Origin: Sipunculus nudus
Lineage: Eukaryota; Annelida; Sipuncula; Golfingiida; Sipunculidae
Reading direction: 5' to 3'
NCBI GenBank assembly: GCA_026874595.1
Contig: CM049318.1
Coordinates: forward strand, 6,339,741-6,403,740
DNA: 64,000 bases
Shown here: in pieces, positions 870 through 50,823 of the stretch
Layout of the letters: the number at the start of each line of letters is the position of its first letter
Numbering within the stretch: position 1 is the first letter of the stretch
The notes under the pieces: generated by a model
Told to the model about the DNA's origin: nothing
Databases searched by the model: none
What the model saw: the letters and a program-made list of their open reading frames with translations, nothing else
Position numbers and translations under genes: made by a program

Positions 870-1756
870 TTAGCGAACCTGGAGCTTATGCGATGGTGCG
901 TCATCGTCCGACGGCTGTCCAAGGTTGGCTGTCCAATGTCCATGGCTGTAAGTCAGAAAACGTTGGAGTTAGCAGCTCCAAATTACATATAAGAATTAGT
1001 CACATGTAAAAACATGGTGTCCTAAAGCTTATTATTTGATATCTGCATTAATTTAGATTTTATAGAGAAATAGCTTAAAAACCTTTAAAAATCTTCTGTG
1101 AAACTGTCCAGCCAAATTGTCCAATATTTCACAGAAATGTCCATGGAACAATCTCTCTCAAGTTTGTTCAGATGGTTCCAGTTCAGTGATTTTTGACAGA
1201 GTTACAGGAAGTTGAACTTGAGTCATATCTGAATTTGTGGTATTGGTGGCGCCACCTGCATTGGTCTTTTTGTACAGGGGTCAACGGTGCCTGAAGCATA
1301 CAGAGGGCTACAAAAAACTTCTCTGAAAGGGTAAAGCCAAATTGTTAGCGAACCTGTGAGCTTATGCGATGGTGCAGCGTCGTCCGTTGTGTGTCGTGCG
1401 TGGTCTGTACGTTAACCATAGCTATCTCAAAAACGGCAGAAGCTAGCATCACCAAATTTTTTGCAAATAATCAGTCATCTGAAAAACTATCGGATTTTGT
1501 TTATTTTTTTTCTAACTGCATTTTCTTAGATTTTATAGGGAAAAAGCTAAAAAAGCTTTAAAAATTCTCTTCTCCGAAACTGTCCAGCCAAATTGTCAAG
1601 TATTTTACAGAAATGATCCCTAGAACAATCTTTCTTAAGTTTATTCGAATGGTTCCAGTTTGGAGATTTTTGGCCAAGTTACAGGAGGTTGAACTTAGTC
1701 ATCTGTCCAAAAAAGCACACTAAAATTAAAATCTCAGAAACGGCTAGAGCTATAAT

Positions 1757-2150
1757 CGGTCCGTCGATTTACCCAAAACACCGGTGTTTTGGGTAAATAG
1801 GACGAAACACTATGAAACACCTATTAAGCCTCAATATTTAACAAATTTAACAACACATGTCGTTAGAATATAACATTATTCACTTACAGGCGTTGTTTTA
1901 AAGTAAAATGTTGGATAATAAAGTAAATTTTGAGTGTTTAGTTTGAGATCGTTTACGCCGGCCACAAGAGCCCGACTTTTTCCATTACACCCCTTGATCG
2001 GTAGTGCTGCCATCCCCTGGAGGATATGAAAACAACCGTGCTCCGGGTTGGTCAGGCAAAACATCGTGACTCCCGCCTTAAACATGCCGTCCACCTCGTT
2101 CCAGAACGGGCTACATGCTTATGATAATAGTGTTGATTATGTGATTATTA
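1757..2150 (+). repeat. Left terminal inverted repeat of the MULE-like element
   Basis: The outermost bases read GGTCCGTCG, followed at 1,767-1,798 by a perfect 32-bp palindrome whose half is ATTTACCCAAAACACC. The arm is the reverse complement of 6,800-7,195 with only scattered differences until about 2,150, where similarity fades into AT-rich sequence. On the minus strand it holds an open frame (1,876-2,094) matching the one in the right arm with two residue changes. Confidence 0.85.
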
Positions 2151-2262
2151 AATAATAATTAGGACATAGACCTAAAAATCAAGAAAAGGAGAATAAACTT
2201 GATTTTAGCGAGTCCTATAGGCCCATGAGTTGCAGCTTGGGGTTAAACCGCGAGAACATGTT

Positions 2263-2361
2263 TCAGACACATGTGGACATCGTCGGCCGCTTAGTCTGAC
2301 AATTGGGCCAACCCATGTTAACATAACACGAGTCACTGAAGTCACCGGGCGTGTATGCCAT
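2263..2361 (-). pseudogene. Short exon-like frame inside the MULE-like element
   Basis: The minus strand reads an ATG followed by 31 sense codons (MAYTPGDFSDSCYVNMGWPN and 12 more) before a stop. Beyond the stop the same frame stays open for another 15 codons. The patch is richer in GC and CpG than its surroundings. No family is recognised. It may be a captured exon piece, a decayed element gene or chance. Confidence 0.15.
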
Positions 2362-2777
2362 GTAAATAAAAACTTTTTTTCCAGAAGGATGATATTATTA
2401 TTTCCCTAAGGATGATTAACTTTCACTCTCAACAGATGATTTGTTACTCCGTGTTCTGACTTATGCATAAAGCTGGACTCGTGGGTTATATACACATTTA
2501 TCGTTATAAACTTTAACGTTCTATCGTTATAAACTGGACTTTCGTTTTTCGTAATTGAACATTTATTATAGGGCCCTAATAGAATGTAGGAATATACCCA
2601 AATATCAAACCCCTTCTTTCGGGAGAAAGATCTTTCGGGAGAAAGAAGATCTTTCGGGTATCGTGTAACAGCGAATGTGAAGCACTGCAAATACTGAAAT
2701 AATTAAGATTCTGAAGGGTTTATTACTATTGAGGACTATGAATATTTTATCTTTCACCTGAGCAGATGCTGTTTAAT

Positions 2778-2778
<1 letters not shown>

Positions 2779-2819
<41 letters not shown>
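2779..2819. repeat. (TA)n microsatellite
   Basis: About 20 uninterrupted TA dinucleotides in the interior of the MULE-like element. Confidence 0.95.
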
Positions 2820-2823
<4 letters not shown>

Positions 2824-3546: not shown

Positions 3547-3662
3547 TGATGAACAGACTGTTTACAGTGACATATGTGTCCTGTGTAATTGTATTGTTTG
3601 TATATGCAAAGGAGGAATCGATATGGTTTTAGTCATCAGTCCTTTGAATGAACTGGAGTATG

Positions 3663-3665
<3 letters not shown>

Positions 3666-3716
<51 letters not shown>
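3666..3716. repeat. (TA)n microsatellite
   Basis: About 25 TA dinucleotides, inside the MULE-like element. Confidence 0.95.
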
Positions 3717-7205: not shown

Positions 7206-7790
7206 ACCAAATTTTATACCAATGTTTGTCACACATGTCATATCTGAAATTGAGGTATTGGTGGCGCCACCTACATTGATGTGTTTTTTTACAAGCGAAA
7301 ATATAATTTTAAACTCTTCTAGCTTATACACTGACTTATGATGAAACTGTTAAGCCGATTGGTTTAAACTTTACAAGAATTATTCTATGGTAGGGTTCTG
7401 CCAGTTTTATAAGAATAGATAAGGTGAATACAGCTTTGAAAAAAGCATTGTAGCCAATTGAAAAAGGCATCCTGTGTTTGAAAACAGATTTGACAACATG
7501 CTGAGTTTCAGCAGCCAAGTCAAGAGGTCACTCAGTACAAACAGGTGGGGTCCAGACATCACCATGGCAACTGACCTGGCTCTGGTGGGTGTCTATAGAC
7601 AATGTGTCTAGACGTCAAGACACAGCATCTAGATGTCTAGACACAATGTCTAGATGCAGAATTCCCAGATTATTGGAACTATATCTTTCAACTGTTTGAA
7701 AAAACTTGGTTTGCATTTTTTAGCGAATCGGGTTTATCATCAGGTCACATGTGAACTGCTGCGCCGTCATTTTGGTTGACTTCTGACCTT
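7206..7790 (+). repeat. Family 2 body with XbaI-type palindrome cluster
   Basis: This resumes the family 2 unit interrupted at 1,757 and carries a perfect GGTGGCGCCACC at 7,260-7,271. Between 7,585 and 7,650, TCTAGACG/TCTAGATG motifs are clustered. The block 7,410-7,680 is repeated, diverged, at 8,778-9,005. A further shared segment (7,640-7,850) reappears at 42,520-42,770. Confidence 0.7.
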
Positions 7791-8775
7791 TCCTCTCTGC
7801 CCAGCGTCCATTTGTGCATCTGTTTCCACACATAAACCCACATATCTCAGGAACCATTTGACAGATCAGGCTACAAATTTTGCACAAATGTAGCCCTTTG
7901 ATAGCTTTATAACATACACTAAAAATGGTGGCACCACCTGCAACCATTTTTGCACAGCGACCATCTGTTCATCTGCCTTGGGATAAAATCACTCATATCT
8001 CAGCAGTGGTTTGACTTTTCCACCTGAAATTTTGCAGGTTTATACATCCTAGACAGCTTTCTCGAGTTTATGACAGGTGGCGCCACCTACATTCATGTTT
8101 ACTCTGCAGACATCCAAGCTCATATCTCGGGAACCGTTTGACCGATTGAGCCAAAATTTTGCAAGTGTATAGATCTCACATAGCTCTTCATCATAGGCAA
8201 AACTGGTGGCGCCACCTGCAACCATTTATGCACAACGTCCATCTGTTCATCTGCCTTGGGATAAAATCATTCATATCTCAGCAGTGGTTTGACTTATCCA
8301 CCTGAAATTTTGCAGGTTTATACATCCTGGACAGCTTTCTCGATTTTATGACAGGTGGCACCACCTACATTCATGTTTACTCTGCAGACATCCAAGCTCA
8401 TATCTCGGGAACTGTTTGACTGATCTGGCCAAAATTTTGCAAGTGTATAGATCTCACATAGCTCTCATCATAGGCAAAACTGGTTGCGCCACCTGCAACC
8501 ATTTATGCACAACTTCCATCAGTTCATCTGCCTTGGGATAAAATAACTCATATCTGAGAAGTGGTTTGACTTTTCCACCTGAAATTTTGCAGGTTTATAC
8601 ATAATAGACAGCTCTCATGATTTTATGACAGGTGGTGACACCTACATTCAGGTTTACTTTGCAGACATCCAAGCTCGTATCTCTGGAACGGTTTGACTGA
8701 TTAGGCCAAAATTTTGCATGTGTATAGATCTCACATAGCTCTTCATGATAGCAAAACTGGTGGCGCCACCTGCTT
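7790..8775 (+). repeat. ~277-bp dimeric tandem array (A/B monomers of ~138 bp)
   Basis: The phrase 'ggtttgac' after 'cagcagt' or 'gagaagt' falls at 8,008, 8,286 and 8,562. Each ~277-bp period contains two related ~138-bp halves: half A has 'atctcgggaaccgtttgac', half B 'atctcagcagtggtttgac'. Both halves have 'aaattttgca' and end in the GGTGGCGCCACC motif (perfect at 8,076, 8,205 and 8,759). The same array recurs at 47,354-48,540. The minus strand stays open over parts of it, but the frames follow the repeat and are not taken as coding. Confidence 0.85.
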
Positions 8776-9144: not shown

Positions 9145-9359
9145 GCTGTTACATGTGGCACATTAGGTACCCTGACCTGGGGGAAAGCTGAGCCTCCATT
9201 GCCAGGATGCATGAGTAGGTGTGACTCAATACCAAGGCTACAAAAGAAACTTGTTCTTAGATTTTATAGGGAAAAAGCAAAAAAAAAATGTTTATGCCCC
9301 CACAACAAAGTGGCCGGGGCATATAGTTTTACCCATGTCCGTCCTTCCGTCATTCTGTC

Positions 9360-9925
9360 ATTCTGAAATCAAACAGTTGTACGGACTTTTTTTCGCAGTG
9401 CCTGCAGATATTGGCCTGATTTTTGGTGTGTGGACAGATAATGACCAGTTACAGATCAAGTTCGAGTTTCATCTCGGTTGACCTACTTTTGACTGTTTTA
9501 CGGCTCCTAAACTTAGAAAATGTCATGAAAAATAGAAATTTTCATGACAAATACACATGTACAGACTTTTTTTCACAATGCCTGCAGATTTTGGCCTGAT
9601 TTTTGGTGTGTGGGCAGATAATGACCAGTTACAGATTGAGTTCGCGTTTCGTCGTGGTTGACCTACTTTTGACCGTTTTACGGCTCCTAAACTTAGAAAA
9701 TTTCATGAAAAATAGATATTTTTATGACAAATACACATGTACGGACTTTTTTTCGCAATGCCTGCAGATATTGACCTGATTTATGGTGTGTGGACAGATA
9801 ATGACCAGTTACAGATTGAGTTTGCGTTTCGTCACGGTTGACCTACTTTTGATTGTTTTACAGCTCCTAAACATAGAAAATTGCATGAAAAATATAAATT
9901 TTCATGAAAAATGTACATGTACAGC
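9360..9925 (+). repeat. ~184-bp tandem units of family 3
   Basis: Three copies start near 9,375, 9,560 and 9,740, each with 'cggactttttttcgcaatg', 'ttttggtgtgtggacagata' and 'ggttgacctacttttga'. Further diverged copies follow the inserted family 4 element (10,877-11,200). Unlike most arrays here, these units lack the GGTGGCGCCACC palindrome. Confidence 0.85.
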
Positions 9926-9930
9926 CGTTT

Positions 9931-10872
9931 TTAGCCCTCAGCTCATAGGCTGATGGGCTATTGTTGTCACCCAAGCTGTCCGTCTGTCCATCCGTCTTGA
10001 CGTCCGTCTGTCTGTCCGTCTGTTTGTCCGTCTGTCTGTCCATCTGACGTCCGTCCGTGCGTGTCTGTTAACTTTTACCTTGTGAGCAGGATTTCTCTAA
10101 AAGGATTCACAGTTGGAATTTTATTTCATCAGTGAAGATGTATATCGATAAAATCTCAGTCAAGTTCGAAGATGGGTGACCTTGACCCATTTTTCTACAT
10201 TTTACAGTTGATTATAGAAAAATACTCAGAAGCTTATATCTTGGGAACCATTGTGTCGATTTTCACAAAACTTACTATGATCATTGGGACTGATGGTCTG
10301 TAGGTGCTGCACAATTTTGGTGGCGCCACCTGCAATTTCTGATTTTTTAATCAATTTTTATCGGATTTTTCAATTTTGGCCTTGTGAGCGGGATATCTCT
10401 TAAAGGATTCACCGTTGGAATTTTATTTCATCAGTGAAGATATATATCAACAAAATCTTGGTCAAGTGCAAAGATTGGTGATCTTGACCTATTTTTCTTT
10501 GTTTTAGAGCTGATGATACAAAAACACTCAGAAGCTTATATCTCAGGAACCATTGTGTGGATTCTCACAAAACTTACTATGATCATTTGGAATGATGGTC
10601 TGTGCGTGCTGCACAATTTTGGTGGCACCACCTACAATTTCTGATTTTTTAATGAATTTTTATCAGATTTTTCAATTTTGAAAATTTACAAAATTTTGGT
10701 CAAGTTCAAAGATGGGTGATCTTGACCTACTTTTCAAGGTCACAGAGCTTAGTATAGAAAAAAACTTAGGAGCTTATTTCTCAGGAAGCATTTGGTGGAT
10801 TGTTATGAAACATGGTACATACCTCTCCAATTTAAATTTATAACTTAATATCAGCTTTTGCTAATATTCTAG
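9931..10872 (+). mobile_element. Family 4 element, TTAGCCC...CTAG, nested in family 3
   Basis: Begins after TTT with TAGCCC-TCAGC, which pairs with GCTGA-TGGGCTA at 9,949-9,960 to form a 5' hairpin. A CTGTC/CCGTC-rich stretch follows (9,975-10,065). The core has about three ~300-bp units, with a perfect GGTGGCGCCACC at 10,319-10,330 and a one-base variant at 10,621. It ends at CTAG (10,869-10,872) followed by TTTT. The family 3 unit ('acatgtac...' then 'gcaatgc...') resumes across the insertion, which supports both boundaries. Confidence 0.65.
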
Positions 10873-11537
10873 TTTTGCAATGCAATGCTTACAGATACTA
10901 GCCTAATGTTTGGTCTGTTGGCGCATAATGACCACTCACAGATCAAGTTCGCGTTTTGTCCCAGTTGACTTATTTTTGACCATATGACAGATCCTGAACA
11001 TAGAAAATTTCATGAAATACAGAAATTTTTATGAAAATGCACGTATAGACTTTTTTTTCACAATGCCTGCAGATACTGGCCTGATTTTTGGTGTGTTGCT
11101 TGATAATGACCTGTTATAGATCGAGTTTGCATTTTTGCCCTTGTTGACCTACTTTTGACCATATGACACCTCCTGAACTTTAAAAATTTTTACAAAATTT
11201 AACAAATGTTTCTAATTTGCCCCAGGCGGGGGCATTCGTGTCGTTCCGACACATCTAGTTTAATGTTCTTCTTCGAAACCATACTGCCAAATTGTCCGTT
11301 CATCTGTCCCAATATCCCTCCCTGGCCAAAAGAACATATTGGAAATATCCTGACTGATACATCCTAGTTTTAAAATGTCCTAGTCCGAAACGTGCAGGTC
11401 TGAAACATCCATTTGGCTGAAATCATAATGACTAAGGTAGATATGCAGGTTATGAGAGGATCAGTATTATATTTAAAAAAAATAAACATTAATACTCCCA
11501 ATCTTTGCACAGGTTTGCATTAGGCCTGTAGGCCTTG

Positions 11538-12148: not shown

Positions 12149-15100
12149 TTAGCTCAGCTGACTGAAAGTCATCTGAGCTATAGCGATCACTCTTTGTCCG
12201 TCGTCCGTCTGTCTGTCTGTCTGTCCATCTGTCTGTCTGTCCGTCTGTCTGTCCGTTAACCAGGCACAAATCGTAACTGCTAGAACTGGAATCTTCTTAC
12301 TTGACATCCTGGGAGGTCCATGAAAAATCTCCTTGGAAACCAGAAATTAGGTTTCTGTTACCCATATCCTTCGAGCTATGGGGCCCCAAAGTACCCCCCA
12401 GAAAAGTCCAAAATTTCATACAAAAACTTCAATATCTCATTAACTACTTGACTGATGGTCATGATTTTTGGCATACATATTGATCATGAGAGGTTCCATC
12501 AGTTTCTGAAGACTGGTGGCGCCACCTGTATTTTTCGATTTTTTACGAATTTTTTTCTCTTATTTTTGAGACCTTTAAAAATGTGAACATCTGTTAACAA
12601 GGCACAAATCGTAATGACTGGACTTAGAATCTTCATTCTCGACACACTGAGAGACCTATGAAAAGTCTCCAAGGAAACCAGAAATTAGGTCTCTGTTACC
12701 CATATCCTTCCAGCTATAGGGCCCCAAACTACCCCCCAGAAATGTAAAAAATTTCAAACAAAAACTTCAATATCTCATTAAATACTTGACTGATGGTCAT
12801 GATTTTTGTCATACATATTGATCATGAGATGTTCCATCACTTCCTGCAGACTGGTGGCGCCACCTGTATCGTTCAATTTTTTACGAATTTTTTTCTCTAT
12901 TTTTGAGACCTTTCAAAATGTAAACAACTGTTAACAAGGCACAAATCGTAAAGACTAGACCTAGAATCTTCATTCTTGACACACTGAGAGACCTATGAAA
13001 AGTCTCCATGGAAACCAGAAATTAGGTCTCTGTTACCCATATTCTTCGAGCTATGGAGCCCCAAAGTACCCCCAAGAAAAGTAAAAAATTTCATACAAAA
13101 ACTTCAATATCTCATTAACGACTTGACTGATGGTCATGATTTGTGGCATAACTATTGATCATGAGATGTGTCATCACTTCCTGCAGACTGGTGGTGCCAC
13201 CCTTTTTGTTCGATTTTTTAAGATTTTTTCCTCTATTTTTGAGACCTTTAAGGATGCTGTCATCTGTTAGCATGGCACAAATCGTAACAACTGGACCTAG
13301 AATCTTCATTCTTAACACGCTGAGAGGTCCATGAAAAATATCCTTGGAAACCAGAAATTAGGTCTCTGTTAACCATATCCTTCGAGCTATAGGGCCCCAA
13401 AGTACCCCCCCCCCCCCCAAGAAAAGTAAAAAATTTCATACAAAAACTTCAATATCTCATTAACTACTTGAATGATGGTCATGATTTGTGGCATAACTAT
13501 TGATCATGAGATGTGTCATCTGTTCCTGCAGACTTGTGGCGCCACCTGTATCGTTCGATTTTTTACGATTTTTTCCTCTATTTTTGAGACCTTTAAGGAT
13601 GCTGTCATCTGTTAGCATGGCACAAATAGTAACGACTGGACCTAGAATCTTCATTCTCAACACACTAGAAGACCTATGAAAAGTCTCCATGGAAACCAGA
13701 AATTAGGTCTCTGTTACCCATATCCTTCGAGCTATGGGGCCCCAAAGTACCCCCCCCCCAGAGTAGTCAAAAATTTCATGAATACAAAAACTTCAATATC
13801 TCAATAACTACATCACTGATGGTCATGATTTTTGGCATACATATTGATTATGAGATGTTCCATCAGTTCCTGCAGACTGGTGGCACCACCTATGTTATCT
13901 ATCAAGAGGGTACAAATTGCAACAACTGGACCTAGAAACTTCATTCTTGTCATGCAAGGAGGCCCATGAAGAGTGCCTGTGGAAACTTGAAATTAGGTCT
14001 CTGTTACCCATATCCTTGAAGCTATAGGACTCTGAAGTATCCCTCAGAATAATGGACAATTTGATACAAAAGCTGGAGTATCTGAACAACTAATACGGAG
14101 ATCATCATGATTCTTTGCATGGATATTGACCATTAAGTGTTTTAAGCTCAGCTGACTGTAAGTCATCTGAAGTATCCCTCAGAATAATGGACAATTTGAT
14201 ACAAAAGCTCAAGTATCTAAACAACTATTGCAGTGATCACCATGATTCTTTGCATGGATATTGATCATGGAATGTGTCATCAGTTTCTGCAGTATGGTGG
14301 CGCCACCTGTATTTTTTTTATTTTTACGAATTTTTTTCTCTATTTTTGAGACCTCATAAGATGAAGTCATCTGTTAACATGGCACAAATCGTAACAACTG
14401 GACCTAGAATCTTCTCTCTTGACATGCTGAGAGGCCCATGAAAAGTTTCCTTAAAAACTTGAAATTAGGTCTCTGTTACCCATAACCTCTGAGCTATGGG
14501 GCTCCGAAGTACCCCCATAAATAATGGAAAATGATACAAAAGCTCAAGTATCTGAACAATTATTATATTGATCACCATGATTCTTTGCATGGATATTGAT
14601 CATGAAATGTTTCATCAGTTTCTGCATTCTGGTGGCGCCACCTGTATTTTTTCAATTTTTAGCTCAGCTGACTGAAAGTCATCTGAGCTGTAGGGATCAC
14701 CTTTTGTACGTCGTCCGTCCGGCCATCCATGCGTCTGTCTGTTAACAGGGCACAAATCTTAACCGCTAGACCATGAATCTTCTTACTTGAAATCCTGGGA
14801 GTTCTATGGAAATTCTCCTTGTAAACCTGAAATTAGATCACTGTGACCTATATTCTTCGAGCTATGGGGTTCTGAAGTACCCCCCAGAATAATGCAAAAT
14901 TTAATACAAAAGCTCAAGTATCTGAACAACTAATGCATTAATCACCATGATTCTTTGCATGGATATTGATCATGGAGTGTTTCATCAATTTCTGGAGATT
15001 GGTGGCGCCACCTATATTTTTTTTATTTTTTACAATTTTTTTTCTCTACTTTTGTGATCTTTAAACATTTGGTCATCTGTAAACAGGGCACAAATCATAA

Positions 15101-15688
15101 GGACTGGACCTAGAATCTTCTGTCCTCACCTCCAGGGAAGCCCATAAAAGGTCTACATGGAAACCCGAAATAAGGTCCCTGTTACCCATATCCTTCATGC
15201 TCTGGGGCTCCGAAGTACTCCCCAGAATAAAGATTTGGTCATCTGTTAACAGAGCACAAATTATAATGACTTGACCTAGAATCTCCTTTCTTGATATGCT
15301 GGGAGGCCCCTGAAAAGTCTCCTTGTGCACCTGAAATTACATCTCTGTTACCCATATCCTTCATCCTATGCGGCTTTGAAATACCCCTCAGAATAAACAT
15401 TTGGATTTGTTAACAGGGCACAAATCATAATAACTGGACCTAGAATTTTATTTTTTGACATGCTGGGAGACCCCTGAAAAGTCATCTTGTAAACCTTGAA
15501 GATAGGTGTCTGTTACCCATATCCTTCATGCTACAGAGCTCCATAGTACCCCAATGAATATTGGATGATTTTATACAAAACGTCAAGTTTGGAAAAAGTA
15601 TTTCATTCAAATTTGACATTCAGATGATAAAATTACTTTTGTCAATGTCTTCCTGGTCAGCTGAGCGTCATGAACCCTGGGTCACTTG
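12149..15688 (+). mobile_element. Family 1 rolling-circle-like element, complete (3.5 kb)
   Basis: The 5' end TTAGCTCAGCTGACT pairs with AGTCATCTGAGCT to form a terminal hairpin. A CCGTC/CTGTC tract (12,195-12,255) follows, then about ten ~340-bp tandem units. The 3' end has CAGCTGAGC (15,658-15,666), which is inverted relative to GCTCAGCTG at the 5' end, then a weak GACCC/GGGTC-type stem and CACTTG next to T. The surrounding AGGTCA element reads through when this segment is removed. A second, truncated 5' hairpin lies at 14,145 and another complete one at 14,656, which suggests internal duplications or nested copies. Confidence 0.65.
12255..15560 (+). repeat. ~340-bp tandem units of family 1
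   Basis: The phrase 'gttaac..ggcacaaatc' recurs near 12,257, 12,592, 12,930, 13,263, 13,610, 14,370, 14,730, 15,072, 15,245 and 15,410. Early spacings are 332-347 bp and shorter later. Perfect GGTGGCGCCACC palindromes lie at 12,515, 12,853, 14,296, 14,631 and 15,001, with one-base variants between. Short C runs (10-14 bases) occur at the same unit position in two copies (13,405 and 13,750). The open frames here follow the repeat and are not called as genes. Confidence 0.85.
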
Positions 15689-37734: not shown

Positions 37735-38234
37735 TATGCGTCTTTGATGGCTTTCTCATTCAAAAGACAGGTGTTGCCACCTACAAAGATTTTTGCACAG
37801 TGTATGCACCTGCTTATTTCTACGGAGGAAGTTGATAAATCAGCCTGAATTGGGCATATTTTTACATATTGGATAGCTTTATCATGTACAAGACTGGTGG
37901 CGCCATCTACAATAATTTTTGCACAGTGTATGTCCCTGCTTATATTGCTGGAGGGGTTTCACATATCACTCTGAAATTGGGCATATGTGTATATATCTTC
38001 ATTGTATACAAAACATGTGGTGCCAGCTATAATTAGTTTTGTGTTGTGTGCACCCATGCCAGATTTCAGCAGAGATGTTTGTGTAATTGTTTCTTGTTCA
38101 AAATGTTTAGTACTGGTACCTGCATTGTTCATATACATGTTATGCATGTACTTGAAAAGTAATGGTCCAGCATTGCAGTATTATACCTGGTGTATATCAG
38201 ATTGCACAGGTTTGCATTAGGCCTGAAGGCCTTG
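37735..38234 (+). mobile_element. Family 2 copy, 5'-truncated
   Basis: About three ~133-bp units with degenerate palindromes (GGTGTTGCCACC near 37,770, GGTGGCGCCATC at 37,897) lead to the family 2 3' end: CACAGGTTTGC, hairpin AGGCCT-GA-AGGCCT (38,219-38,232) and CTTG at 38,231-38,234 followed by T. No 5' end was found upstream. Confidence 0.7.
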
Positions 38235-40185: not shown

Positions 40186-42096
40186 TTAGCTCAGCTGACT
40201 ATAAGTCATCTGAGCTATAGTCGTGGTCCATTGTCCGTCGTCCGTCCGTCTGTCCGTCCGTCCGTCCGTCCGTCCGTAGATGTGGCACGTTTTCAAACCG
40301 TAAGACCTAGGATTCCAAAATTCAGCATAATGTTAGATGTCCCCAAGATCTCCTACCAAGCCGAAAACTGGGTCTTTGCGACTTCGTTCCTTTGAGAAAT
40401 TAAGGAAAAACCTCAATTTTTTATTAAAATCCTATTTTCACACTTCAGGACTGCCTAATATCAAAACCACTCATCTGTTTTTCCTCATATTTACCATAAA
40501 TATTCTTCCATATAGTTCCTATGTACATGCCAGAAATTAAGTCTGTTAAGTATAAATTCTTTAAGTTATGGGCCCAAACATAATGGACTTTGTAAAAAAT
40601 CAGGAAAAATATTTACTCACTTAACATGAAAAATTTTGAAACTAGAGTCTATTTTCCCAAGTATATAACTATGTTTAATTAAGATTCAATTGCTTACCAA
40701 AAATTAGATCTGAATTTTGTAAATTTTTTAAGTAATTAGCATAAAAATAAAATCAGTACCTTAAATTTTGCCCAACTTTGACCATGGCACGTTTTTTTCC
40801 TGTAAGTACCATTGATTTAATTTTCACAGCATGTAAACATAAATATTTAATTTGTTTAAATCTGAAATTTGGAAATAAAAGCTTGAAAATTAAGCTAGTT
40901 ATTGATTTTTTTCTTGAGGCTCTATTGTAGTCATTTGCTTTGATTAGAGGTTACAGATGCAGGGTCCCACTCCAGGTCACTGGAAGTCAGCTATGCCAGG
41001 GTTTCTGATTTGTTACAGTCACTGGGGGAGATCCCCTGCTGTGACAGGTGTACAGTTATTCTCATATCACCACCCCCAATATCACCCCCCCCCCCCCCGC
41101 AAACCCAACCCACCAAGTGTTATGCAGTATTGTTATTGTTTTCACTGTATCTCCTTAATTGTATTGCTGTTTCCACTCTAATATGCAAAAACTTTCCTTG
41201 AAAAAGTAATTCAAAGTGTTATCCAGAAGATGCAATGTTGTGTAATGTAGCATTTTTAAAGAAATCATTTTTCTTTTAAATCATTTTACCAATCATAATG
41301 GAACCCATCAGTATGCTTAAATTATGATAAAATATGAAGCACATTATGGATAAATAAAGACACAATTAAAAATTGTGAAATCTTAATCAAGTATTTTTTT
41401 TAGATCTTTATTGTTTTGCAGATTTAAAAGATATATTTTTGTGGTAAAAAATAAATAAACATTTGTATGCATGATGTGGTGTTATCTGACAAGATTGAGA
41501 TTTATGATGATGCAATTGAGAATTATGAATCAACTTTTATATTCAGATATATATGTTATATTGAAAATGTATAGATATATAAACTTAAATTTTAAAAAAA
41601 AATTGATGTGATAAAAAAATGAGGATTTATTACAAACATTTGTTCATTATTTTCCTGCATCAGCAGAATTTGAGATCAGGCTTTGTTTGCCATGTTTTAT
41701 GTTGTTAATTAGTTATATTTCAACTGTATACATTTCATAAAAAAAAACATATATTTAATAATATATATTATACAAAAAAAAGATTCGATTGAACAAATGT
41801 TTAAACTACTGAAATGTCAACAGTTAATCGAAAAGCCAACTAATGATCATGGTAATTGTACAGATCATTTGTTCACAAACTGCTCACATGCTTCAGTTTC
41901 AACATTAGGAAACACATGGTCAGGTCACAAAATATTATTTGCAACAATTTCTTGCTCATCAATACAAACCAATCATATAAACCAACCATGGCCTTTATTA
42001 CCTCTTCCTCTTACACTTTATCTCCATTTGATTTTATTTTAGATTTTTACCTTCAAGGTTAACGTCAGCTGAGCACAGTGACCCATAGGTCCCTTG
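40186..42096 (+). mobile_element. Family 1 element, complete (1.9 kb)
   Basis: The 5' end is TTAGCTCAGCTGACT with its pairing AGTCATCTGAGCT, then a (TCCG/TCTG) tract (40,236-40,278). The 3' end has CAGCTGAGC at 42,066-42,074, a GACC-CATA-GGTC stem and CTTG at 42,093-42,096 followed by T. The body differs from the 12-15 kb copy: instead of ~340-bp units it has the long AT-rich sequence shared with 42.9-46.6 kb ('cctaatatcaaaaccact', 'atgggcccaaacataatg'). Only the two ends are shared with the shorter-unit form. A 14-C run lies at 41,085-41,098. No coding capacity was seen. Confidence 0.75.
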
Positions 42097-42500
42097 TTTT
42101 TAATACAGCATGTCTGGAGGAGATTCTACAGCTGGTGATAAGCAGTTATAAGATGAGTCTTCATGTCATTTTCATGTGCCATAAATGTCATGTGTTGCAT
42201 CAGTAGCTCACAGTCAGACCAGCTTGCGGGCCACTTCAACTAGATAATACTAACCAGGTTTACATACCCAGTATTCTGATAATCCAAACATCAGCCATAC
42301 TGAAGAAACAACTGACATTGAGATTAAGTGAATATAGCATCTAATAGAACATTGAAATGCAGCATAATTCTGACCCATGACCTTTTAGAAAGATGCATTA
42401 CTTGTTTGGAGACATGGAAGATGTCACTGATTAAAGACTCATTGTCAATGCCATTAATTATGATTTAATAAAAAAAAACTATTTTAATCTATAAATCCCA
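42097..42500. other. Unique non-coding DNA between two nested elements
   Basis: No repeat recognised and no supported gene. Confidence 0.5.
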
Positions 42501-43964
42501 GCATCTGTTTAACTTGAGCACAGCGTCTAGACGTCTAGTCACAATGTTTAGATGCAGAATTCCCAGATTATTGGAACTATATCAACAACAGTTTGAAAAA
42601 ACTTGGTTTGCATTTTAAGCGAATTGTGTTTATCATCAGGTCACATGTGAACTGCTGCGCCCTCATTTTGGTTGACCTCTGACCTTTCCTCGCTGCCCAG
42701 CATCCATTTGTGCATCTGTTTCCACACATAAACCCACATACAACAGTTTGAAAAAACTTGGTTTGCATTTTAAGCGAATCAGGTTTATCATCAGGTCACA
42801 TGTGAACTGCTGCCCCCTCATTAGCTCAGCTGACTATAAGTCATCTGAGCTATAGTCGTGGTCCTTTGGCCGTCGTCTGGCCGTCCGGCCATTAACAGGG
42901 CATGTTTTAAAACCGTTGGACCTATGAATCCAAAACTTTGCATACCATTAGATGTCCCAAAAATCTCCTACCATACCAAAAATTGGGTCATTAGGACTTT
43001 GTTCCTTTGAGATATTAAGGAAAAACCTCCGTTTTCCATAAAAAAAGCCATTGTTACAATTCAAGGCTGCCTAATATCAAAACCACTGATCTGTTTTTGA
43101 TCATATTTAGTATTCATATACTTCCATACATTTTCTATGAATATACCAAAATTAGGTCAGTATTGTTTATTATTTTGAAGTTATGGGCCCAAATATAATG
43201 CAATTTTAAAAAAATCACGAAATATATTTACTCACTTAACATGAGAATTGCTGAAGCTGGAGACATTTTTTCAGGAATATAACTTCATTTAATCAAGATT
43301 CAATTGTTTACTCAAAATTAGATCTGAATTTTGCAAATTTGTCAAGTTATTAGCATAAATAAAAAATGAATACCTCAAATTTTGTCCAACTTTGGCAATG
43401 GCACATTTTTTCCCTGTAAGCACTGTTGATTTAAATTTCATAACATATATACACAAGGATTTAATCTTTTAAAATCTGAAATTTCAAAGGAATTGATTGA
43501 AAAGAGCAGTTTTTATTCAAGTTTCCATACACCATGTCAAGTGTTGTTTACATCTAGCCCACCTGGTAGTACAGCCTTCACTTGCATTATGTAACCGACC
43601 CCAGGCAGCTTGCATTAGCTCAGCTTGGCCACTACCAGCAGGCTTCCCCTCTGCCCTGCACTCCCTCCCCCCCCCCCCCCCAATGGTGCATTAACTAGAT
43701 GAATGTTATAATTTTCTGTATTTTATTTTATTCTTGGCTATGCTACATTTTAGATTTTGTATTGTACCAACAGGGTTACAATGATTTAAGTGCACATTTA
43801 ATTGTGTCCACAAAGTGGTGTATTGCTATGAAAGTGTGGATGTTCATCAGATAAGTAATTCCTTACTTCAGAAGAGTTAAAAACTTCCCCAAGTGTGAAA
43901 TTGAATATTAATTCCAGTAATAAATTATAGCTGAGATAGTAATTAAGCACAATGATATTGTTTT

Positions 43965-46605
43965 TTAGCTCAGCTGACTATAAGTCATCTGAGCTATAGT
44001 CGTGGTCCATTGTCCGTCGTCCGTCCGTCTGTCCGTCCGTCAGTCCGTTTGTCCGTCCGTCCGTAGATGTGGCACGTTTTGAAACCGTAAGACCTAGGAA
44101 TCCAAAATTTGGCATAATGTTAGCTGTCCCCAAGCTCTCCTACCAAGCCAAAAAATGGGTCTTTGCGACTTTGTTCCTTTGAGAAATTAAGGAAAAACCT
44201 CAATTTTTTATTAAAAACCTATTTTCACACTTTAGGGCTGCCTAATATCAAAACCACTCATCTGTTTTTCCTCATATTTACCATAAATATTCCTCTATAT
44301 AGTTCCTATGTACATGCCTGAAATTATGTCTGTATTATATAATTTAAGAAAGTTATGGGCCAGAACATAATGCATTTTGTAAAAAATCAGGAAAGATATT
44401 TGATCACTTAACACAAAACTTGTTAAAGCTATGGACTTTTTTTCAAGTAATATAACTTTAATTAATCAAAATTAAATTGTATACCCAAAATTAGATCAAA
44501 ATCTTTTAAATTTTTTAAAATATTAGCAAAAACAAAAAATTGGTACCTTAAATTTTGCCTAACTTTGACCATGGCACGTTTTTTTCCTGTAAGTACTGTG
44601 GATTAAATTTTCTCAGCATGTTTTTGTTAGCATTTTGTCTGTTAACACCAAAAATTTGAAACCAGTTGATCAAAAACTGTAGATTTTATTCAAGTTTTCA
44701 AGCACCATGTAACATGTTGTTTACATCAGGCTAGTGTTATGCAGTTTGCAAGAGCTCAGCTCCCCAGCTTAAGCTCTCAGTTCCTAAAATTTGGCATACA
44801 ATTAGATGTCTCTAAAATTCCCTACCATGCCAAGAATTTGGTCACTAGGACTTAATACCTTTGAGATATTAATGAAAAACTTCATTTTTCAATTAAAAAC
44901 CCATTATTACACTTCAATACTGCCTAATATCAAAACCACTGATCTGACTTTAATCATATATAATATACATGTTTTTCAATACATTCTCTGTGCACATGCT
45001 AGAAATGATGTCAGTATTGCGTAATTGTTTTAAGTTATGGGCCCAAACATAATGCACTTTGTAAAAAATCAAGAAATATATTTACTCCCTTAACAAGGGG
45101 CTTGCTGAAGCTAGAGATTTTTTGTCAGGGATGTAAGATTATTTAATCAAGATTCAATTGAATACCCAAAATTAGTTCTGAATTCTTAAAATTTTATAAG
45201 TTATTAGTATAAATATAAAATTAGTACCTTAAATTTTGCCCAACTTTGACCATTTCACTTTTGTTTAATGTGAGCTCTGTTTATATAATTTTCATATCAT
45301 GCACACACAAGGATTTCAGCTTTTTAGTTTAGAAAGCTGAAAGAAATTGGCCAAAAATTGTAGCTTTTATTAATGTTTTTATGAGACCATGTCAGACCTT
45401 GGCTCTCTCCAGCCACTCTTGAGTCACCTGTATGTTGACCTTGTTGAACTTTCAGCAAATTATGCACGCTTGAGGCGAGGCAGATACCGGGGCAGCAAGG
45501 CAGCTTATGGCCAGCCACAGTTGATCCAGGTGTCCAACCCAACTCATCAAGTAGTTTTAACCAACAACATAACAATAAATTAATCAATTTTTATTGGTTT
45601 TTAATAACAAATTAAAGAAAAATAGAAAAGGAATTTGTTAGTTTATATTAATAGGGAAATAACTTGCAGTTACTGATGATATAAGAATCTTGTATTGATG
45701 GATAGAATGTCACATATTCCAAATAACACCATGCAGTCGCCTATGGCATTTTTCAGTTCAATTTTAATAATAAAAAAATAAATCATATTATTCATTACTA
45801 ATCATTAGGGATCATATGAAGGAAATTAATGATAGACAAAGATGCAGTTGATAATATTAATCTAGATTCCTACTGTGTCTAGTGTGTACATTGATGTGAA
45901 ATTAGTCCAAAATAAATATATCACATTTATTTTTTTTAATATAAATAAAAGCCATAAAACCAGGTACTTATGATCATTATTTAAATGTGTGAATTTTGTA
46001 CATTCTGGATTCTCAACACCATTGTTTGGTGAAAACTGAATAAATACCAGACATGGTGGGAATACTTTGCAATTGTATTTAAATACGAATATGAATATGT
46101 ACTCCATTATAAAATTTCTTGCATAAAGAATGGGAATTCAGGAAAAAATGAAAGTATATGAATACCAGTGCAAATACTTTCCAAATGTATTCATAAATGC
46201 ATTCATGAATATATTCTTTAATATTATTTTAATAATCATTTCAGTTATATTTCATTTTAAAAATCATACGATTCTCTTATTATTTTTAATAAAAATTATA
46301 TCTGGGACAATATTTGTAATTTTTTTAATAAATAGTTAAACTCTTATATTATATGTTCTGCTTATAAGTTATATGGCCAAGTCAAAATCTGGGTGACAAT
46401 AGTACTCCATTTGTTAATAAAATAAATGAAATCAATTCTCTTCTCTGTCTCCAAAGGTACTATCAAAATTATACATAAGCTTAACAACAACAACTCATAA
46501 TACAGCTTATACTTATTACCACACAAAACCAGCATGTGCCTCATTTCTAAATCATATTTTTTTATCATATATAACAGCTGAGCGCCGTGACCCATAGGTC
46601 CCTTG
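43965..46605 (+). mobile_element. Family 1 copy nested in another family 1 copy
   Basis: The 5' hairpin at 43,965 is nearly identical to that at 40,186, including the TCCG tract. The nearest matching 3' end is CAGCTGAGC at 46,575-46,583 with a GACC-CATA-GGTC stem and CTTG at 46,602-46,605. A damaged second start lies at 44,752 ('gagctcagctccccagctt'), so this span may be two fused or nested copies. The pairing of these two ends is inferred. Confidence 0.5.
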
Positions 46606-47322
46606 TTCCTCATTCAACCAACAGTGTGTATACTTTATTTGAAAAGATGTTTTTATTTTATCAAATTTACTGAATCTTTTATTTCATTTCAGTGAATAAA
46701 ATTAAGCAAGTACTGAAAACTCCAATGTGCAAAACTTGTTTATAGTGATTCAAGGAATAATCTTGTAGATGCCATGTTGTGGCATTATTTTCTTTTAAAT
46801 TCAGTTTAAACATTTGTGATTTTAAAATAATAAAATAGATGTGTATGCATAATATGACCCAATATGAGCTACACTCTGGATATATAATGATTGCAACTTA
46901 TAATTCAAATATTTTAACTTATATTTTGTTTTTTTTTATTACAAATTTATTAAACTTGTAAATAAATAAAAATGATTCAGATAAAAACTATTAATAGAAA
47001 AAGTGGATATGCTAAAAAAATAGTCTTATATATAAACTTAAATGCATTATTCTCTTGAAAGTGAAATAAAGGTATAAGTCCATTCTGTCCACTTGCCTGT
47101 CCATCTGTAAATTTTTCATATGCATCACAGTACCTCAAAACTGTTACTGTTTTTCTTCATGACAGTCTTGTCAGAATATTAGTTTGCAATAATATATTTA
47201 GAACTTTACTATAACCGAGTAGGAGGGCCCCTTTCCTCTCAGCTTCTCATATGCTTATTTAAATGAAAAACATTACAATAGAACATTTTCATATTTTTGC
47301 ATTTGGTAAAAATTTCAAACTT
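46606..47322 (+). repeat. Body of the outer family 1 element
   Basis: AT-rich sequence between the inner and outer family 1 3' ends, belonging to the 42,821-47,353 element. No coding sequence supported. Confidence 0.5.
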
Positions 47323-47353
47323 CAGCTGAGCGCCGTGACCCATGGGTCCCTTG

Positions 47354-48540
47354 TTTTTTGTTGACCTCTGACCTTTCCTCGCTGCCCAGCGTCCATTTGT
47401 GCATCTGTTTCCACACATAAACCCGCATATCTCGGGAACCGTTTGACCGATCAGGCTAAACATTTTGCACAAATGTAGCCCTTTGATAGCTTTATAACAT
47501 ACACTAAAAATGGTGGCGCCACCTGCAACCATTTTTGCACAGCGTCCATCTGTTCATCTGCCGTGGGATAATATCACTCATATCTCAGCAGTGGTTTGAC
47601 TTATCCACCTGAAATTTTGCAGGTTTATACATCCTGGACAGGTTTCTCGATTTTATGACAGATGGGGCCACCTACATTCACATTTACTCTGCAGACATCC
47701 AAGCTCATATCTATGAAACCGTTTGACTGATTTGGCCAAAATTTTGCATGTGTATAGATCTCACATAACTCTTCATCATAGGCAAAACTGGTGGCGCCAC
47801 CTTTTACCATTTATGCACAGTGTCCATCTGTTCATCTGCCTTGGGATAAAATCACTCATATCTCAGCAGTGGTTTGACTTATCCATCTGAAATTTTGCAG
47901 GTTTATTCATCCTGGAAGCTTTCTCGATTTTATGACAGGTGGCACCACCTACATTCATGTTAACTCTGCAGACACCCAAGGTCATATCTCGGGAACCGTT
48001 TGACCTATTGGGCCAAAATTTTGCATGTGTATAGATCTCACAAAGCTCTTCATCATAGGCAAAACTGGTGGCCCCACCTGCAACCATTTATGCACAGCGT
48101 CCATCTGTTCGTCTGACTTGGGATAAAATCACTCATATCTCAGCAGTGGTTTGACTTATCCACCTGAAATTTTGCAGGTTTATACATCTTTGACAGGTTT
48201 CTTGATTTTATGACAGGTGGCACCGCCTACATTCAGATTTACTCTGCAGACATCCAAGCTCAGATCTCGGGAACCGTTTGACCGATTGGGCCAAAATTTT
48301 GCATGTGTATAGATCTCACATAGCTCTTCATCACTGGCAAAACTGGTGGCACCATCTCTGTTACCATTTATGCACAGCATCCATCTGTTCATCTGCCTTG
48401 GGATAAAATCACTCATATCTCAGCAGTGGTTTGACTTTTCCACCTGAAATTTTGCAGGTTTATACATCCTGGACAATTTTCTTGATTTTATGACAGGTGG
48501 CACCACCTACATTCACGTTTAAGCTGCAGACATCCATGCT
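47354..48540 (+). repeat. ~277-bp dimeric tandem array, second copy
   Basis: Same A/B units as at 7,790-8,775. 'ggtttgactt' recurs near 47,592, 47,873, 48,148 and 48,428. Perfect GGTGGCGCCACC at 47,512 and 47,790, with one-base variants in the other units. The minus strand has several similar short open frames (MVAGGATSFAYDEELCEIYT and on) that reflect the repeat rather than a gene family. Confidence 0.85.
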
Positions 48541-48828
48541 AATATGCAATACACCTCACTCTATTCCCCTTGCCACTTAATCCATGCCACACTTCACCTG
48601 TCCCACTCTGATTTCTGCGGATACACATAGTCGCTTGTCTACTACCCATATTCTAGTTTTAAAATGTCCTAGTCTGAAACTTGCAGGTCGGAAATGTCCA
48701 TTTTGCTGAAATCATAATGACTAGGGTAGATATGCAGGACTTAAAAGGATCAATATTAAATTTTAAAAGTAAACCTCCATTCATACTCGCAATATTTGCA
48801 CAGGTTCGCATTAGGCCTGTAGGCCTTG
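48541..48828 (+). repeat. Family 2 3' module
   Basis: About 170 bp (48,655-48,828) match 11,370-11,537 closely: 'gttttaaaatgtcctagtc', 'ctgaaatcataatgact', 'gtagatatgcagg' and the terminal hairpin. The segment before it (48,555-48,645) resembles 11,880-11,965. Confidence 0.8.
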
Positions 48829-50823
48829 TTAAAAAATCATATGATTCTCTTATTTTTAATTAAAAATTATATTTGGCACAATATTTGTTATTAAATTTTA
48901 ATAAATAGTTAAACTCTTATATTATATGTGCTGCTCATAGGTTATATGGCCTAGTCAAAATCTGTGTGACAATAGCACTCCAGTTGTTAATAAAATAAAT
49001 GAAATCAATCCTCTTCCCTGTCTCCAAAGACACTATCAAAATCATACATAAGCTAAACACCAACAACTCATAATACAGCTTATATTTATTACCACACAAA
49101 ACCAGCATGTGCCTCATTTCCAAATCATATTTTTTATCATATATAACAGCTGAGCGCCATGACCCATTGTTCCCTTGTTTGTCAGGGATATAACCTTATT
49201 TAATCAAGATCCAATTGTATACCAAAAATTAGTTATGAATTTTTTTTTTTAATTTTACAAGTGATCAGCTTAAATATAAAATCAGTACCAAAAATTTTGC
49301 CCAACTTTGACCATGGCATGTTTGTTTCCTGTAAGCAAGATGTTTTATGGATTATTTATGGATGGATGAAAATGTATTCAAAATAACACCATGGAGTCAC
49401 CTATGGTATTTTTCATTTCAGTTTTAGTAATAAAAGAAGGAATTAAATTATATTGTTCTTTACTACATGTATTAGGGATTATTTGATGGAAATAAATGAT
49501 AGACAAAGATGCAGTTGATAATATTAAAATAAATTTCAAGGTCTTTTCCAAGTGTTTCAGCTTGTTAATTTATATTAATTGCAAAATAAAAAAAAAAATA
49601 AAATAAAAATATGTCAAAATTTTAAAAATTTTATTCAGGCAAGTACTGATTAAAGATGTAAGAATGTTTCACTAATGACATTGAGACTCATGGCTGTATC
49701 AGTTGTCACAAGACTATGTAAATAATCAAAATTTATATTACTGGTTCCTTTATTTCAATTAATAAAATTAAACTTGCCCATCTCTAGTTTTCTCCTTGTA
49801 TAAGTTATAGGGTGTTCTTATCCTTCGGTTTTTACACATATAATGGTTTCATAGCTGAGATTTTTTTCTGATACATTTTTTTATAAAAATATTCGAATAT
49901 GATTAGAATCAGATCTTAGACAAGTTCTCCTTATGATTGTTGTAATGTTAATAAGTGTCATAAGACTCTTGCCGTGTCTAGTGTGTAGATTGATGTAAGA
50001 CAAGTTCAAAGTGAATGTAGTAGTTTTATTTTTAAATATAAATTGAAGCCATAAAACCAGGTAATTGTGATCATTATTTAAATTTGTGAATTTTGTATAT
50101 TCTTGATTCTCAACAACATTGTTCAGCTGAAACTGAATAAATACCAGACATGGTGAAAATTTTTTGCAAATGTATTCTAATACAAATATGAATATGTACT
50201 CCATAATATCATGCATAAGTATAGGAATACAGGTAAAAAAGAAAATTTTTGAATACAAATGCAGATACTTTCAAAATGTATTCATGAATGCTTTCGTGAA
50301 TATATTCTATAATATTATGTAAATAATTATTTATTTCAGTTATTTTTAAAAATTTCAGATGATGCTGTTTTTACTTTTAATTTAAATAATATTTAACAAT
50401 ATTTGTTTTTTAATTTTCTATAAATACTTAAACTCGTAGGCCTATATTATTTGTGCAAGTGCTACTCTTGGGTAGGGATAGCCTGTAAATATAAAATAAC
50501 AGTTAACTCATTTGTAAAAAGCATAATTAACATAACTGATAAAGGACAGTTTTTTTTTCAAATACTTCTACTGCATGTGGATAAAATTATATGGCCAAGT
50601 CAATACCTGTGTGACAATAACACTCAATTTGCAATTTATGTAAATGACATCAATCCACTTCCCTGTCTCCAAAGATACTATCATAATCTTACATAAGCTA
50701 AACACCAACAACACATAATACAGTTATATTACCACACAAAACCAGCATGTGCCTCATTTCCAAATCATATTTTCTGTTCATATATAACAGCTGAGCACAG
50801 TGACCCCTGGGTGAGGTCCCTTG
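48829..50823 (+). mobile_element. Two nested family 1 3' halves
   Basis: 48,829-49,177 matches 46,262-46,605 and ends with CAGCTGAGC (49,148-49,156) and CTTG (49,174-49,177). Directly after it, 'tttgtcagggatataacc' begins a second family 1 body that matches 45,118 onward and runs to another 3' end, CAGCTGAGC at 50,788-50,796 and CTTG at 50,820-50,823. Neither has a 5' hairpin directly upstream, so their starts were lost or lie in the pile to the left. The family 2 3' end at 48,828 abuts the first half. Confidence 0.65.

What the first reader, a model, noticed from the sequence alone, without database searches (positions are those of the whole stretch)
870..50823. Four sequence-unrelated repeat families share one modular plan
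Families 1, 2 and 4 all begin with TTAGC after a T tract (TTAGCTCAGCTG, TTAGCGAACCTG, TTAGCCCTCAGC). Families 1, 3 and 4 then have a paired 5' motif and a CCGTC/CTGTC-rich tract or remnant. All four carry a core of tandem units (138-340 bp). They end at CTTG or CTAG followed by T. Families 1, 2 and 3 also have subterminal inverted motifs (GCTCAGCTG/CAGCTGAGC, GCGAACCTGTG/CACAGGTTCGC, ATGCCCCC/GGGGGCAT) and a hairpin just before the 3' end. Known HINE/Helentron and bivalve 'pearl' elements have a similar plan, but the repeated TTAGC...CTTG/CTAG frame across unrelated bodies suggests a superfamily mobilised by one enzyme.
Basis: partly seen in the sequence, partly recalled or inferred. Interest (0 to 1): 0.85.

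Follow-up and report, generated by a model that had tools for sequence, protein, structure and literature searches.

The report
Rolling-circle transposons inserted along transcription direction
Small non-coding rolling-circle transposons of a known kind lie in this animal genome in stretches where nearly all copies point the same way, and around the genes that could be checked that way is the direction in which the gene is read, which suggests that they insert into the single DNA strand bared by transcription.

Summary
Subterminal inverted repeats, 5' hairpins, GTCC tracts, tandem cores, T-rich targets and one empty site without duplication match the published plan of HINE/Helentron elements (11 Cg_HINE in oyster), so the plan is not new. 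"Sequence-unrelated" is overstated: several, not all, cores share TGGTGGCGCCACCTGCA (26,352 exact copies; control 0). "One enzyme" could not be tested.

What appears new is orientation. On C1 the families share strand domains: cross-family pairs 10-30 kb apart agree in 167 of 174, falling to 60% at 1-3 Mb; a tRNA-SINE ignores the domains (7 of 17). Of 21 pieces (6-10 kb) around protein-kinase exons on 14 other chromosomes, 13 held recognisable elements, all in the gene's sense direction; seven held none, one had a lone ambiguous motif in the opposite sense. T-tract supply and antisense poly(A) signals do not explain it. Best explanation: HUH-type insertion into the displaced non-template strand of transcribed DNA. 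Replication-fork polarity and selection remain rivals. Seven literature searches found no such report.

The parts
870..50823 (+). Stretch of the window in which every recognised terminus motif of families 1-4 points to + (one orientation domain)
   Evidence: 18 + terminus motifs before 50.8 kb; the only - terminus is at 57.7 kb
870..881 (+). Family 2, left end TTAGCGAACCTG after a T tract
1345..1356 (+). Family 2, second left end, close behind the first copy and similar to it over 360 bp
9294..11258 (+). Family 3 element: T-tract|ATGCCCCC 5' hairpin, 180-bp core units, right end GGGGGCAT..GTGTCGTTCCGACACATCTAG|TT; interrupted by family 4
9931..10872 (+). Family 4 element nested in the T tract of a family-3 core unit: TTAGCCCTCAGC hairpin, GTCC/GTCT tract, 302-bp core units, right end CTAG|TTTT
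   Evidence: sister family-3 units at 9378, 9558, 9738 serve as the empty site
11507..11537 (+). Family 2 right end GCACAGGTTTGCATTAGGCCTGTAGGCCTTG|TT
12149..15688 (+). Family 1 cluster: left ends at 12149, 14143, 14659; GTCC tract; 345/166-bp core units; right end about 15658-15688
38204..38234 (+). Family 2 right-end motif
40186..42097 (+). Family 1: left end at 40186, next right end 42066-42097 (not shown to be one copy)
42821..46606 (+). Family 1: left ends at 42821 and 43965, right end 46575-46606
47323..47354 (+). Family 1 right end
48798..48828 (+). Family 2 right end
49147..49178 (+). Family 1 right end
50788..50823 (+). Family 1 right end
   Evidence: read by eye; not in the motif counts
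7210..8775 (+). 277-bp core array of a related element; units carry the GGTGGCGCCACC palindrome
29150..30250 (+). 331-bp core array of a related element with variants of the same palindrome
47426..48545 (+). 278-bp core array, related to 7210-8775
57446..57689 (-). Family 1 left end and core motif on the other strand: the neighbouring, opposite domain
1244..1260 (+). Exact copy of the core motif TGGTGGCGCCACCTGCA in family 2 (others exact at 8204, 10318, 47511)
   Evidence: 26,352 exact copies genome-wide

Best explanation
The families are non-autonomous Helentron-type rolling-circle elements (HINEs). Shown: their orientation on a chromosome is not random but shared by different families over tens of kb to 1 Mb, and in the genes examined it equals the direction of transcription. 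Inferred mechanism: the transposase, a single-strand HUH endonuclease, does not open its own target. It uses T-rich DNA already single-stranded where RNA polymerase passes, that is the displaced non-template strand of a transcription bubble or R-loop. The element's top strand is joined to that strand, so an insertion ends up with its T|TTAGC..CTTG|TT strand in sense. Each transcription unit active in the germ line thereby collects copies of all families in one orientation. Unverified steps: that the Mb-long C1 domain is transcribed; that the bias arises at insertion and not afterwards; which Rep/helicase does it.
For: Orientation domains across families on C1: pairs of different families agree in 64 of 72 (3-10 kb), 167 of 174 (10-30 kb), 370 of 444 (30-100 kb), 777 of 1029 (100-300 kb), 3533 of 5879 (1-3 Mb); beyond 3.3 Mb on C1 families 2, 3, 4 give 15 of 15, 26 of 27, 66 of 98, 164 of 266 and, at 1-3 Mb, 1107 of 2270 (places). 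Each family agrees with the local majority of the two others in 148 of 174 cases, a tRNA-SINE with the local majority in 7 of 17 (SINE places). Gene test: of 21 pieces round protein-kinase exons on 14 chromosomes, 13 (on 11 chromosomes) hold recognisable elements and all 13 are in the gene's sense direction: eight by terminus motifs (23 sense, 0 antisense), five by similarity alone (L016, L018, L020, L029, L038). In L017, L018 and L019 they lie between exons of what appears to be one kinase domain. C1 genes within 35 kb of a listed terminus agree in 3 of 4. In L014 eight + termini lie within 13.5 kb between - copies (with one - end among them), less than a usual replicon (recalled). Sense strands of the gene pieces have no excess of T runs (417 T5+ against 399 A5+), so target sequence does not supply the strand choice.
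Against: No RNA or germ-line data were available. In the six pieces (54 kb) read inside the C1 0.1-1.1 Mb domain, codon-usage scoring showed no convincing host exon among its 90 best segments, so transcription there is unproven. Counter-examples: C1 kinase 17783285 (-) with a family-4 end 12.4 kb away on +; a lone degenerate, nearly palindromic core motif on + in L021 (gene -); a 32-bp minus match inside the plus elements of L024; single discordant termini L006 6689, L011 173, L014 9451. No gene was identified in the window among the seven frames tried, so the rule is untested for the finding's own coordinates. Pair counts are not independent. SINE pairs under 30 kb also agree somewhat (16 of 22).
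Confidence: 0.5

Rival explanations
1. Replication-coupled insertion: elements enter the exposed lagging-strand template, so orientation records fork direction, as for bacterial IS200/IS605 elements (recalled); genes agree because long active genes tend to be replicated co-directionally.
For: One domain of 1 Mb in DNA where no convincing exon was found; cross-family agreement; the same single-strand chemistry.
Against: 13 of 13 gene pieces in sense is more than partial co-orientation would give (0.75^13 = 0.024, own arithmetic with an assumed 75%; not decisive). Small islands such as L014. Outside the first 3.3 Mb of C1 agreement already falls to 66 of 98 at 30-100 kb.
Confidence: 0.2
2. Selection: insertions are random, but antisense copies in genes were lost because they disturb transcription or splicing; only sense copies remain.
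For: Orientation bias of intronic elements put down to selection is well documented in mammals (PMC3517506, PMC1794541, abstracts in the listing), though there it is an antisense excess.
Against: Bias without a clear exception in the 13 gene pieces, in families of different sequence and in short fragments (135 bp in L016, about 54 bp in L032). No excess of poly(A) signals on the antisense strand of the window's elements (45 observed, 44.4 expected), nor of 3' splice-like sites there (0 against 2.4). SINEs in the same regions do not follow the element strand.
Confidence: 0.17
3. Segmental or tandem duplication of DNA that already carried oriented copies, plus inversions.
For: The family-4-in-family-3 composite shows that nests move together; SINE pairs under 30 kb agree in 16 of 22.
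Against: SINEs do not follow the element orientation (7 of 17; SINE-element pairs under 30 kb 24 of 45); a LINE reverse transcriptase in L009 lies on + inside the - domain; flanks of most aligned copies differ (the three composite family-4 copies share theirs); gene pieces on 11 chromosomes give the same rule.
Confidence: 0.05
4. Target preference alone: elements need a T tract on the strand they join, and introns are richer in T tracts on the sense strand.
For: T tracts on the left of most copies.
Against: 417 T5+ against 399 A5+ runs on the sense strand of 20 gene pieces, T/A skew 0.013.
Confidence: 0.03

Closest known systems
Cg_HINE elements of Crassostrea gigas (Vojvoda Zeljko et al. 2020, PMC7492417; Results section read)
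   Same: 5' subTIR, adjacent complementary IR, GTCY/GTCC microsatellite, satellite-like tandem core always in one orientation within the element, 3' subTIR, 3' palindrome, TT/T-rich target, no duplication; unrelated bodies under one plan; compound cores.
   Different: The paper reports insertion 'in both orientations' and no chromosomal preference; the Results do not mention orientation domains or agreement with gene strand. The GGTGGCGCCACC core motif was not seen in the text read (its sequence figures are not held).
DINE-1 / HINE / Helentron (Thomas et al. 2014, PMC4067079; passages read)
   Same: subTIRs, 5' IR, microsatellite, central repeats, 3' stem-loop, Ts at the borders, TT target.
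   Different: No autonomous partner sharing these ends was found here; orientation relative to host genes not discussed in the passages read.
Bivalve 'pearl' elements (recalled, no call)
   Same: Tetranucleotide tract plus tandem core of about 160 bp.
   Different: Not compared by sequence.
IS200/IS605 single-strand transposons (one passage in PMC5876387; lagging-strand preference recalled)
   Same: HUH chemistry, single-stranded DNA, no duplication, orientation set by which strand is bared.
   Different: There replication bares the strand; here transcription is the better candidate.
Helraiser Helitron (PMC5876387; passages read)
   Same: Rolling-circle Rep/helicase, single strand transferred, no target duplication.
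   Different: AT target; which strand of the target is used was not treated in the passages read.
Orientation biases of human L1 (review PMC10030826; passages read)
   Same: Transposon orientation correlated with transcription and with replication direction.

Membership tests
HINE / non-autonomous Helentron | Subterminal inverted repeats (5' and 3' complementary) | tested here: met
   GCTCAGCTG/CAGCTGAGC, GCGAACCTGTG/CACAGGTTCGC, ATGCCCCC/GGGGGCAT in aligned ends. For family 4 on its own no 3' partner was identified.
HINE / non-autonomous Helentron | 5' IR forming a hairpin with the left end | tested here: met
   DNA folds -10.6, -17.5, -9.9 kcal/mol, z -5.4, -7.6, -4.2 for families 1, 3, 4; family 2 not folded
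HINE / non-autonomous Helentron | Palindrome just before the 3' end | tested here: inconclusive
   Family 3 z -2.6, family 2 z -0.9, family 1 z +0.6
HINE / non-autonomous Helentron | Microsatellite followed by tandem core | tested here: met
   GTCC/TGTC tracts at 9978, 12195, 40233, 44012 and core arrays of period 166-345; clear for families 1 and 4, only traces in families 2 and 3
HINE / non-autonomous Helentron | T-rich target, no target-site duplication | tested here: met
   Ts on both sides of most ends; one empty site, family 4 in a family-3 core unit
HINE / non-autonomous Helentron | Autonomous Rep/helicase partner with the same ends | tested here: inconclusive
   143 PF14214 matches listed; three 5' flanks fetched, no recognisable element end in them
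Cut-and-paste DNA transposon | Terminal inverted repeats with staggered target duplication | tested here: not met
   Asymmetric ends, no duplication at the one empty site examined
Single-strand-targeting HUH transposon (works-like claim) | Orientation follows which strand is single-stranded at the target | tested here: inconclusive
   Orientation follows gene strand in 13 of 13 pieces with elements; the strand state of the target cannot be seen from sequence

The most novel reading that the evidence does not exclude
Helentron-type elements insert almost only into the displaced non-template strand of DNA transcribed in the germ line. Their orientation is then a cumulative, genome-wide record of germ-line transcription direction, readable from the assembly alone, including transcripts that no gene model covers (perhaps the 1-Mb domain of C1). 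If general, this answers what state of DNA eukaryotic rolling-circle transposons attack.
Probability: 0.42. Interest if true: 0.92.

Novelty: new variant of a known kind. Interest (0 to 1): 0.78.

Why it matters
How Helitrons choose and open their target is, to my knowledge, unsettled. A sense orientation shared by families of different sequence, and not by a SINE, points to target strand state rather than element sequence. It can be tested at once in any annotated genome rich in HINEs (oysters, clams, DINE-1 in drosophilids). If it holds, these elements become strand-specific markers for gene annotation and for past germ-line transcription, and it explains how they pile up in introns.

Tried and rejected
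First idea, replication-fork polarity, came ('-' to 0.94 Mb, then only '+'). The all-plus tail is a listing artefact: searches compared show that '-' places are cut off earlier than '+' (the lists seem to run assembly piece by piece, plus before minus; my inference). I therefore dropped every '+' after the last '-' in each list: 3 of 100 for the family-1 20-mer, 0 of 100 for family 2, 4 of 100 for family 4, 1 of 100 for family 3, 7 of 100 for the core motif (left out when typing), 3 of 100 and 4 of 100 for the two SINE lists. The place list was not used in the counts. For the cross-family counts 19 of 99 family-3 ends within 3 kb of a family-4 end were also left out (80 used).

Rejected: duplication (SINE control) and T-tract asymmetry. 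The quasi-palindromic 5' end as a source of false strands was checked by reading copies; L006 6689 is a true exception. The first terminus count missed all family-1 right ends through a slip in my pattern; one search repeats it correctly (gene pieces 23 sense and 0 antisense instead of 14 and 0) and brings out one discordant right end, L014 9451. Codon-usage scoring found the kinase exons but in the window and C1 pieces mostly tract artefacts. Ten frames from window (7), L009 (2) and L006 (1) gave no host-gene domain over its cut-off (one reverse transcriptase). A degenerate kinase motif (9 hits) gave nothing useful; the zinc-finger motif gave two C1 genes inside the mapped range, one of them 64 kb from the nearest listed terminus (same strand) and so not counted within 35 kb; kinase C1:20761737 had no listed terminus within 100 kb. 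Flanks of three Rep loci did not reach a recognisable element end. The opposite-strand gene pair L037 held no element, so the fine-scale flip test at genes failed for lack of data.


Full report
WHAT IS THERE. The quoted left ends are exact and are genome-wide repeats: TTAGCTCAGCTG 21,473 + 21,752 copies, TTAGCGAACCTG 3,441 + 3,339, TTAGCCCTCAGC 1,650 + 1,662, with 14, 33 and 13 copies of the reversed control patterns. The right end GTTCCGACACATCTAGT has 1,527 + 1,535 copies, control 0.

ENDS. Left of TTAGC only a T tract is conserved (TTT directly before 28 of 37 family-1, 15 of 16 family-2 and 4 of 4 family-4 left ends; three of the four family-4 copies share more of their left flank because they are copies of one nest). 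Right of family 1's CAGCTGAGCGCCGTGACCCATGGGTCCCTTG and family 2's CACAGGTTYGCATTAGGCCTGTAGGCCTTG only TT(T) is conserved. Family 3 starts T-tract|ATGCCCCC and ends ..GTTCCGACACATCTAG|TT; L032 holds an approximately 54-bp version that is little more than the two ends. Family 4 is inserted in a T tract of a family-3 core unit: sister units at 9378, 9558 and 9738 read ..GTACRGACTTTTTTTC.., the occupied one has ..GTACAGCCGTTTT before TAGCCC and TTTTGCAATG.. after CTAG: no staggered duplication. Nest and host then spread together: 19 of 96 family-4 left ends on C1 are followed within 3 kb by the family-3 right end, 12 of them at 1033-1056 bp (upstream control 1). 5' hairpins are strong, 3' hairpins uneven.

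A SHARED CORE MOTIF. Core units of family 2, family 4, one family-1 body and several related arrays share TGGTGGCGCCACCTGCA: 29 matches in the window at up to 3 mismatches against 0.07 expected and 26,352 exact copies genome-wide, control 0. The family-3 units and the family-1 bodies at 40.2-46.6 kb lack it. So the bodies are neither all related nor all unrelated. Its role is unknown.

KNOWN KIND. The structural features are those in the published description of 11 Cg_HINE elements (PMC7492417, Results read) and of DINE-1/HINE (PMC4067079, passages). Whether one enzyme moves the four families was not testable: 143 Helitron_like_N matches are listed, but the three 5' flanks read held no recognisable end.

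ORIENTATION DOMAINS. In the window 18 of 19 terminus motifs are on +, the last, at 57.7 kb, on -. On C1, after dropping list tails that could be biased, pairs of copies of different families agree in strand in 64 of 72 (3-10 kb), 167 of 174 (10-30 kb), 370 of 444 (30-100 kb), 777 of 1029 (100-300 kb), 1953 of 2833 (0.3-1 Mb) and 3533 of 5879 (1-3 Mb). Leaving out the first 3.3 Mb, families 2-4 give 15 of 15, 26 of 27, 66 of 98, 164 of 266, 400 of 736 and 1107 of 2270. Pairs are not independent; shuffling strands within families never reached the observed neighbour agreement for families 1 and 2 in 20,000 trials and did in 77 of 20,000 for family 4. The largest domain runs from 96 kb to 1.10 Mb with one exception among 112 listed markers (families 1-4 and clustered core motifs). 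Sequence pieces confirm the strands: in six pieces inside that domain 31 terminus motifs on - and 1 on +; in the + pieces L012, L013, L015 13 on + and 0 on -; in L011, at a domain border, 5 and 1. Islands can be small: in L014 eight + termini, with one - right end among them, lie within 13.5 kb between - copies.

CONTROL. A tRNA-derived SINE found in the window (35,087) and in L006 was located on C1 by two patterns (union 162 copies). Its strand agrees with the local element majority in 7 of 17 cases, while each element family agrees with the majority of the two others in 72 of 81, 49 of 60 and 27 of 33 (families 1, 2, 4). SINE-element pairs under 30 kb agree in 24 of 45; SINE-SINE pairs in 16 of 22 under 30 kb (a mild excess) and 12 of 35 at 30-100 kb. 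Duplication of oriented blocks therefore does not explain the domains.

GENE STRAND. Protein-kinase exons (PF00069) were used as markers of gene direction. Pieces were picked by hand from the 138 listed matches by exon pattern, before anything was known of their repeats: 18 of 8 kb and three of 6-10 kb, on 14 chromosomes. Thirteen of the 21 contain elements recognised by similarity to the window's families or by terminus motifs, and in all 13 they lie in the sense direction: L016, L017, L018, L019, L020, L022, L024, L026, L027, L029, L031, L032, L038. L024 has in addition a 32-bp minus match inside its plus elements. Terminus motifs alone: 23 sense, 0 antisense, in eight pieces. In L017, L018 and L019 the elements lie between exons of what appears to be one kinase domain. 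Seven pieces have none. L021 has one lone, near-palindromic core motif in the opposite sense. On C1, four listed genes have a listed terminus within 35 kb: kinase 11192008, zinc finger 15236867 and kinase 24862308 agree, kinase 17783285 disagrees.

MECHANISM. The sense strands of 20 gene pieces have about as many A runs as T runs (399 against 417), so T-tract supply does not choose the strand. The antisense strands of the window's elements have no excess of poly(A) signals (45 against 44.4 expected), which gives no support to purging of antisense copies. Established knowledge (partly recalled; passages in PMC5876387): Helitrons and related HUH enzymes transfer one strand and leave no duplication; the bacterial IS200/IS605 group depends on replication to expose single strands. 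The simplest account is that here transcription exposes the strand: the element's top strand is joined to the displaced non-template strand. Steps shown: domains, cross-family sharing, independence of the SINE, sense direction at the genes examined. Steps inferred: single-strandedness, transcription of the large domains, bias at insertion. Replication-fork polarity with co-oriented genes is the main rival, selection the second.

NOVELTY. Seven literature searches (listings and starts of abstracts, with passages of PMC5876387, PMC4067079, PMC4683698, PMC13286980 and PMC10030826) showed no report of orientation domains or gene-strand agreement for Helitrons or Helentrons; the library lacks most subscription journals. 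PMC7492417 states integration in both orientations and mentions no domains in its Results.

Noticed in passing
window 1244, 8204, 10318, 47511 (exact) and 31 further variants: Palindrome GGTGGCGCCACC (35 matches at up to 2 mismatches, 0.62 expected) in many but not all core units, usually extended to TGGTGGCGCCACCTGCA; 26,352 exact 17-mers genome-wide. A conserved protein-binding or recombination site is possible; function unknown.
   Followed up: partly
window 20559-25124: 4.6-kb C-rich tandem array of 68/204-bp units with very strong GC and AT skew.
   Followed up: no
window 58703-60380: 21-bp minisatellite CTGTAACCTGATTACCAGTAC, about 60 units in the first array and more in its continuation.
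   Followed up: no
window 1758-2146 and 6801-7194: Two 96%-identical copies in opposite orientation, starting near a palindrome (ACCCAAAACACCGGTGTTTTGGGT); looks like a different DNA transposon, and its opposed strands fit the idea that only the rolling-circle elements are oriented.
   Followed up: no
window 35087; L006 5251: tRNA-derived SINE (TGGCTCAGGGGTAGAGC..), about 2,000 copies by exact pattern; used as control.
   Followed up: yes
L032 about 358-420: An approximately 54-bp complete family-3 element consisting only of 5' hairpin, 3' subTIR, 3' hairpin and CTTG|TT: a candidate for the minimal substrate.
   Followed up: partly
L008 (C1:600001-608000): Long repetitive open frames (QFASNLRIFQKK..) and no recognised rolling-circle element, in a gap of the 1-Mb minus domain: probably a satellite array.
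   Followed up: no
L034 and L036: Rep/helicase-encoding Helitron copies on C7 and C11, 95.6% alike from about 1.7 kb before the long frame, with an array of short peptide repeats near the start of that frame.
   Followed up: no
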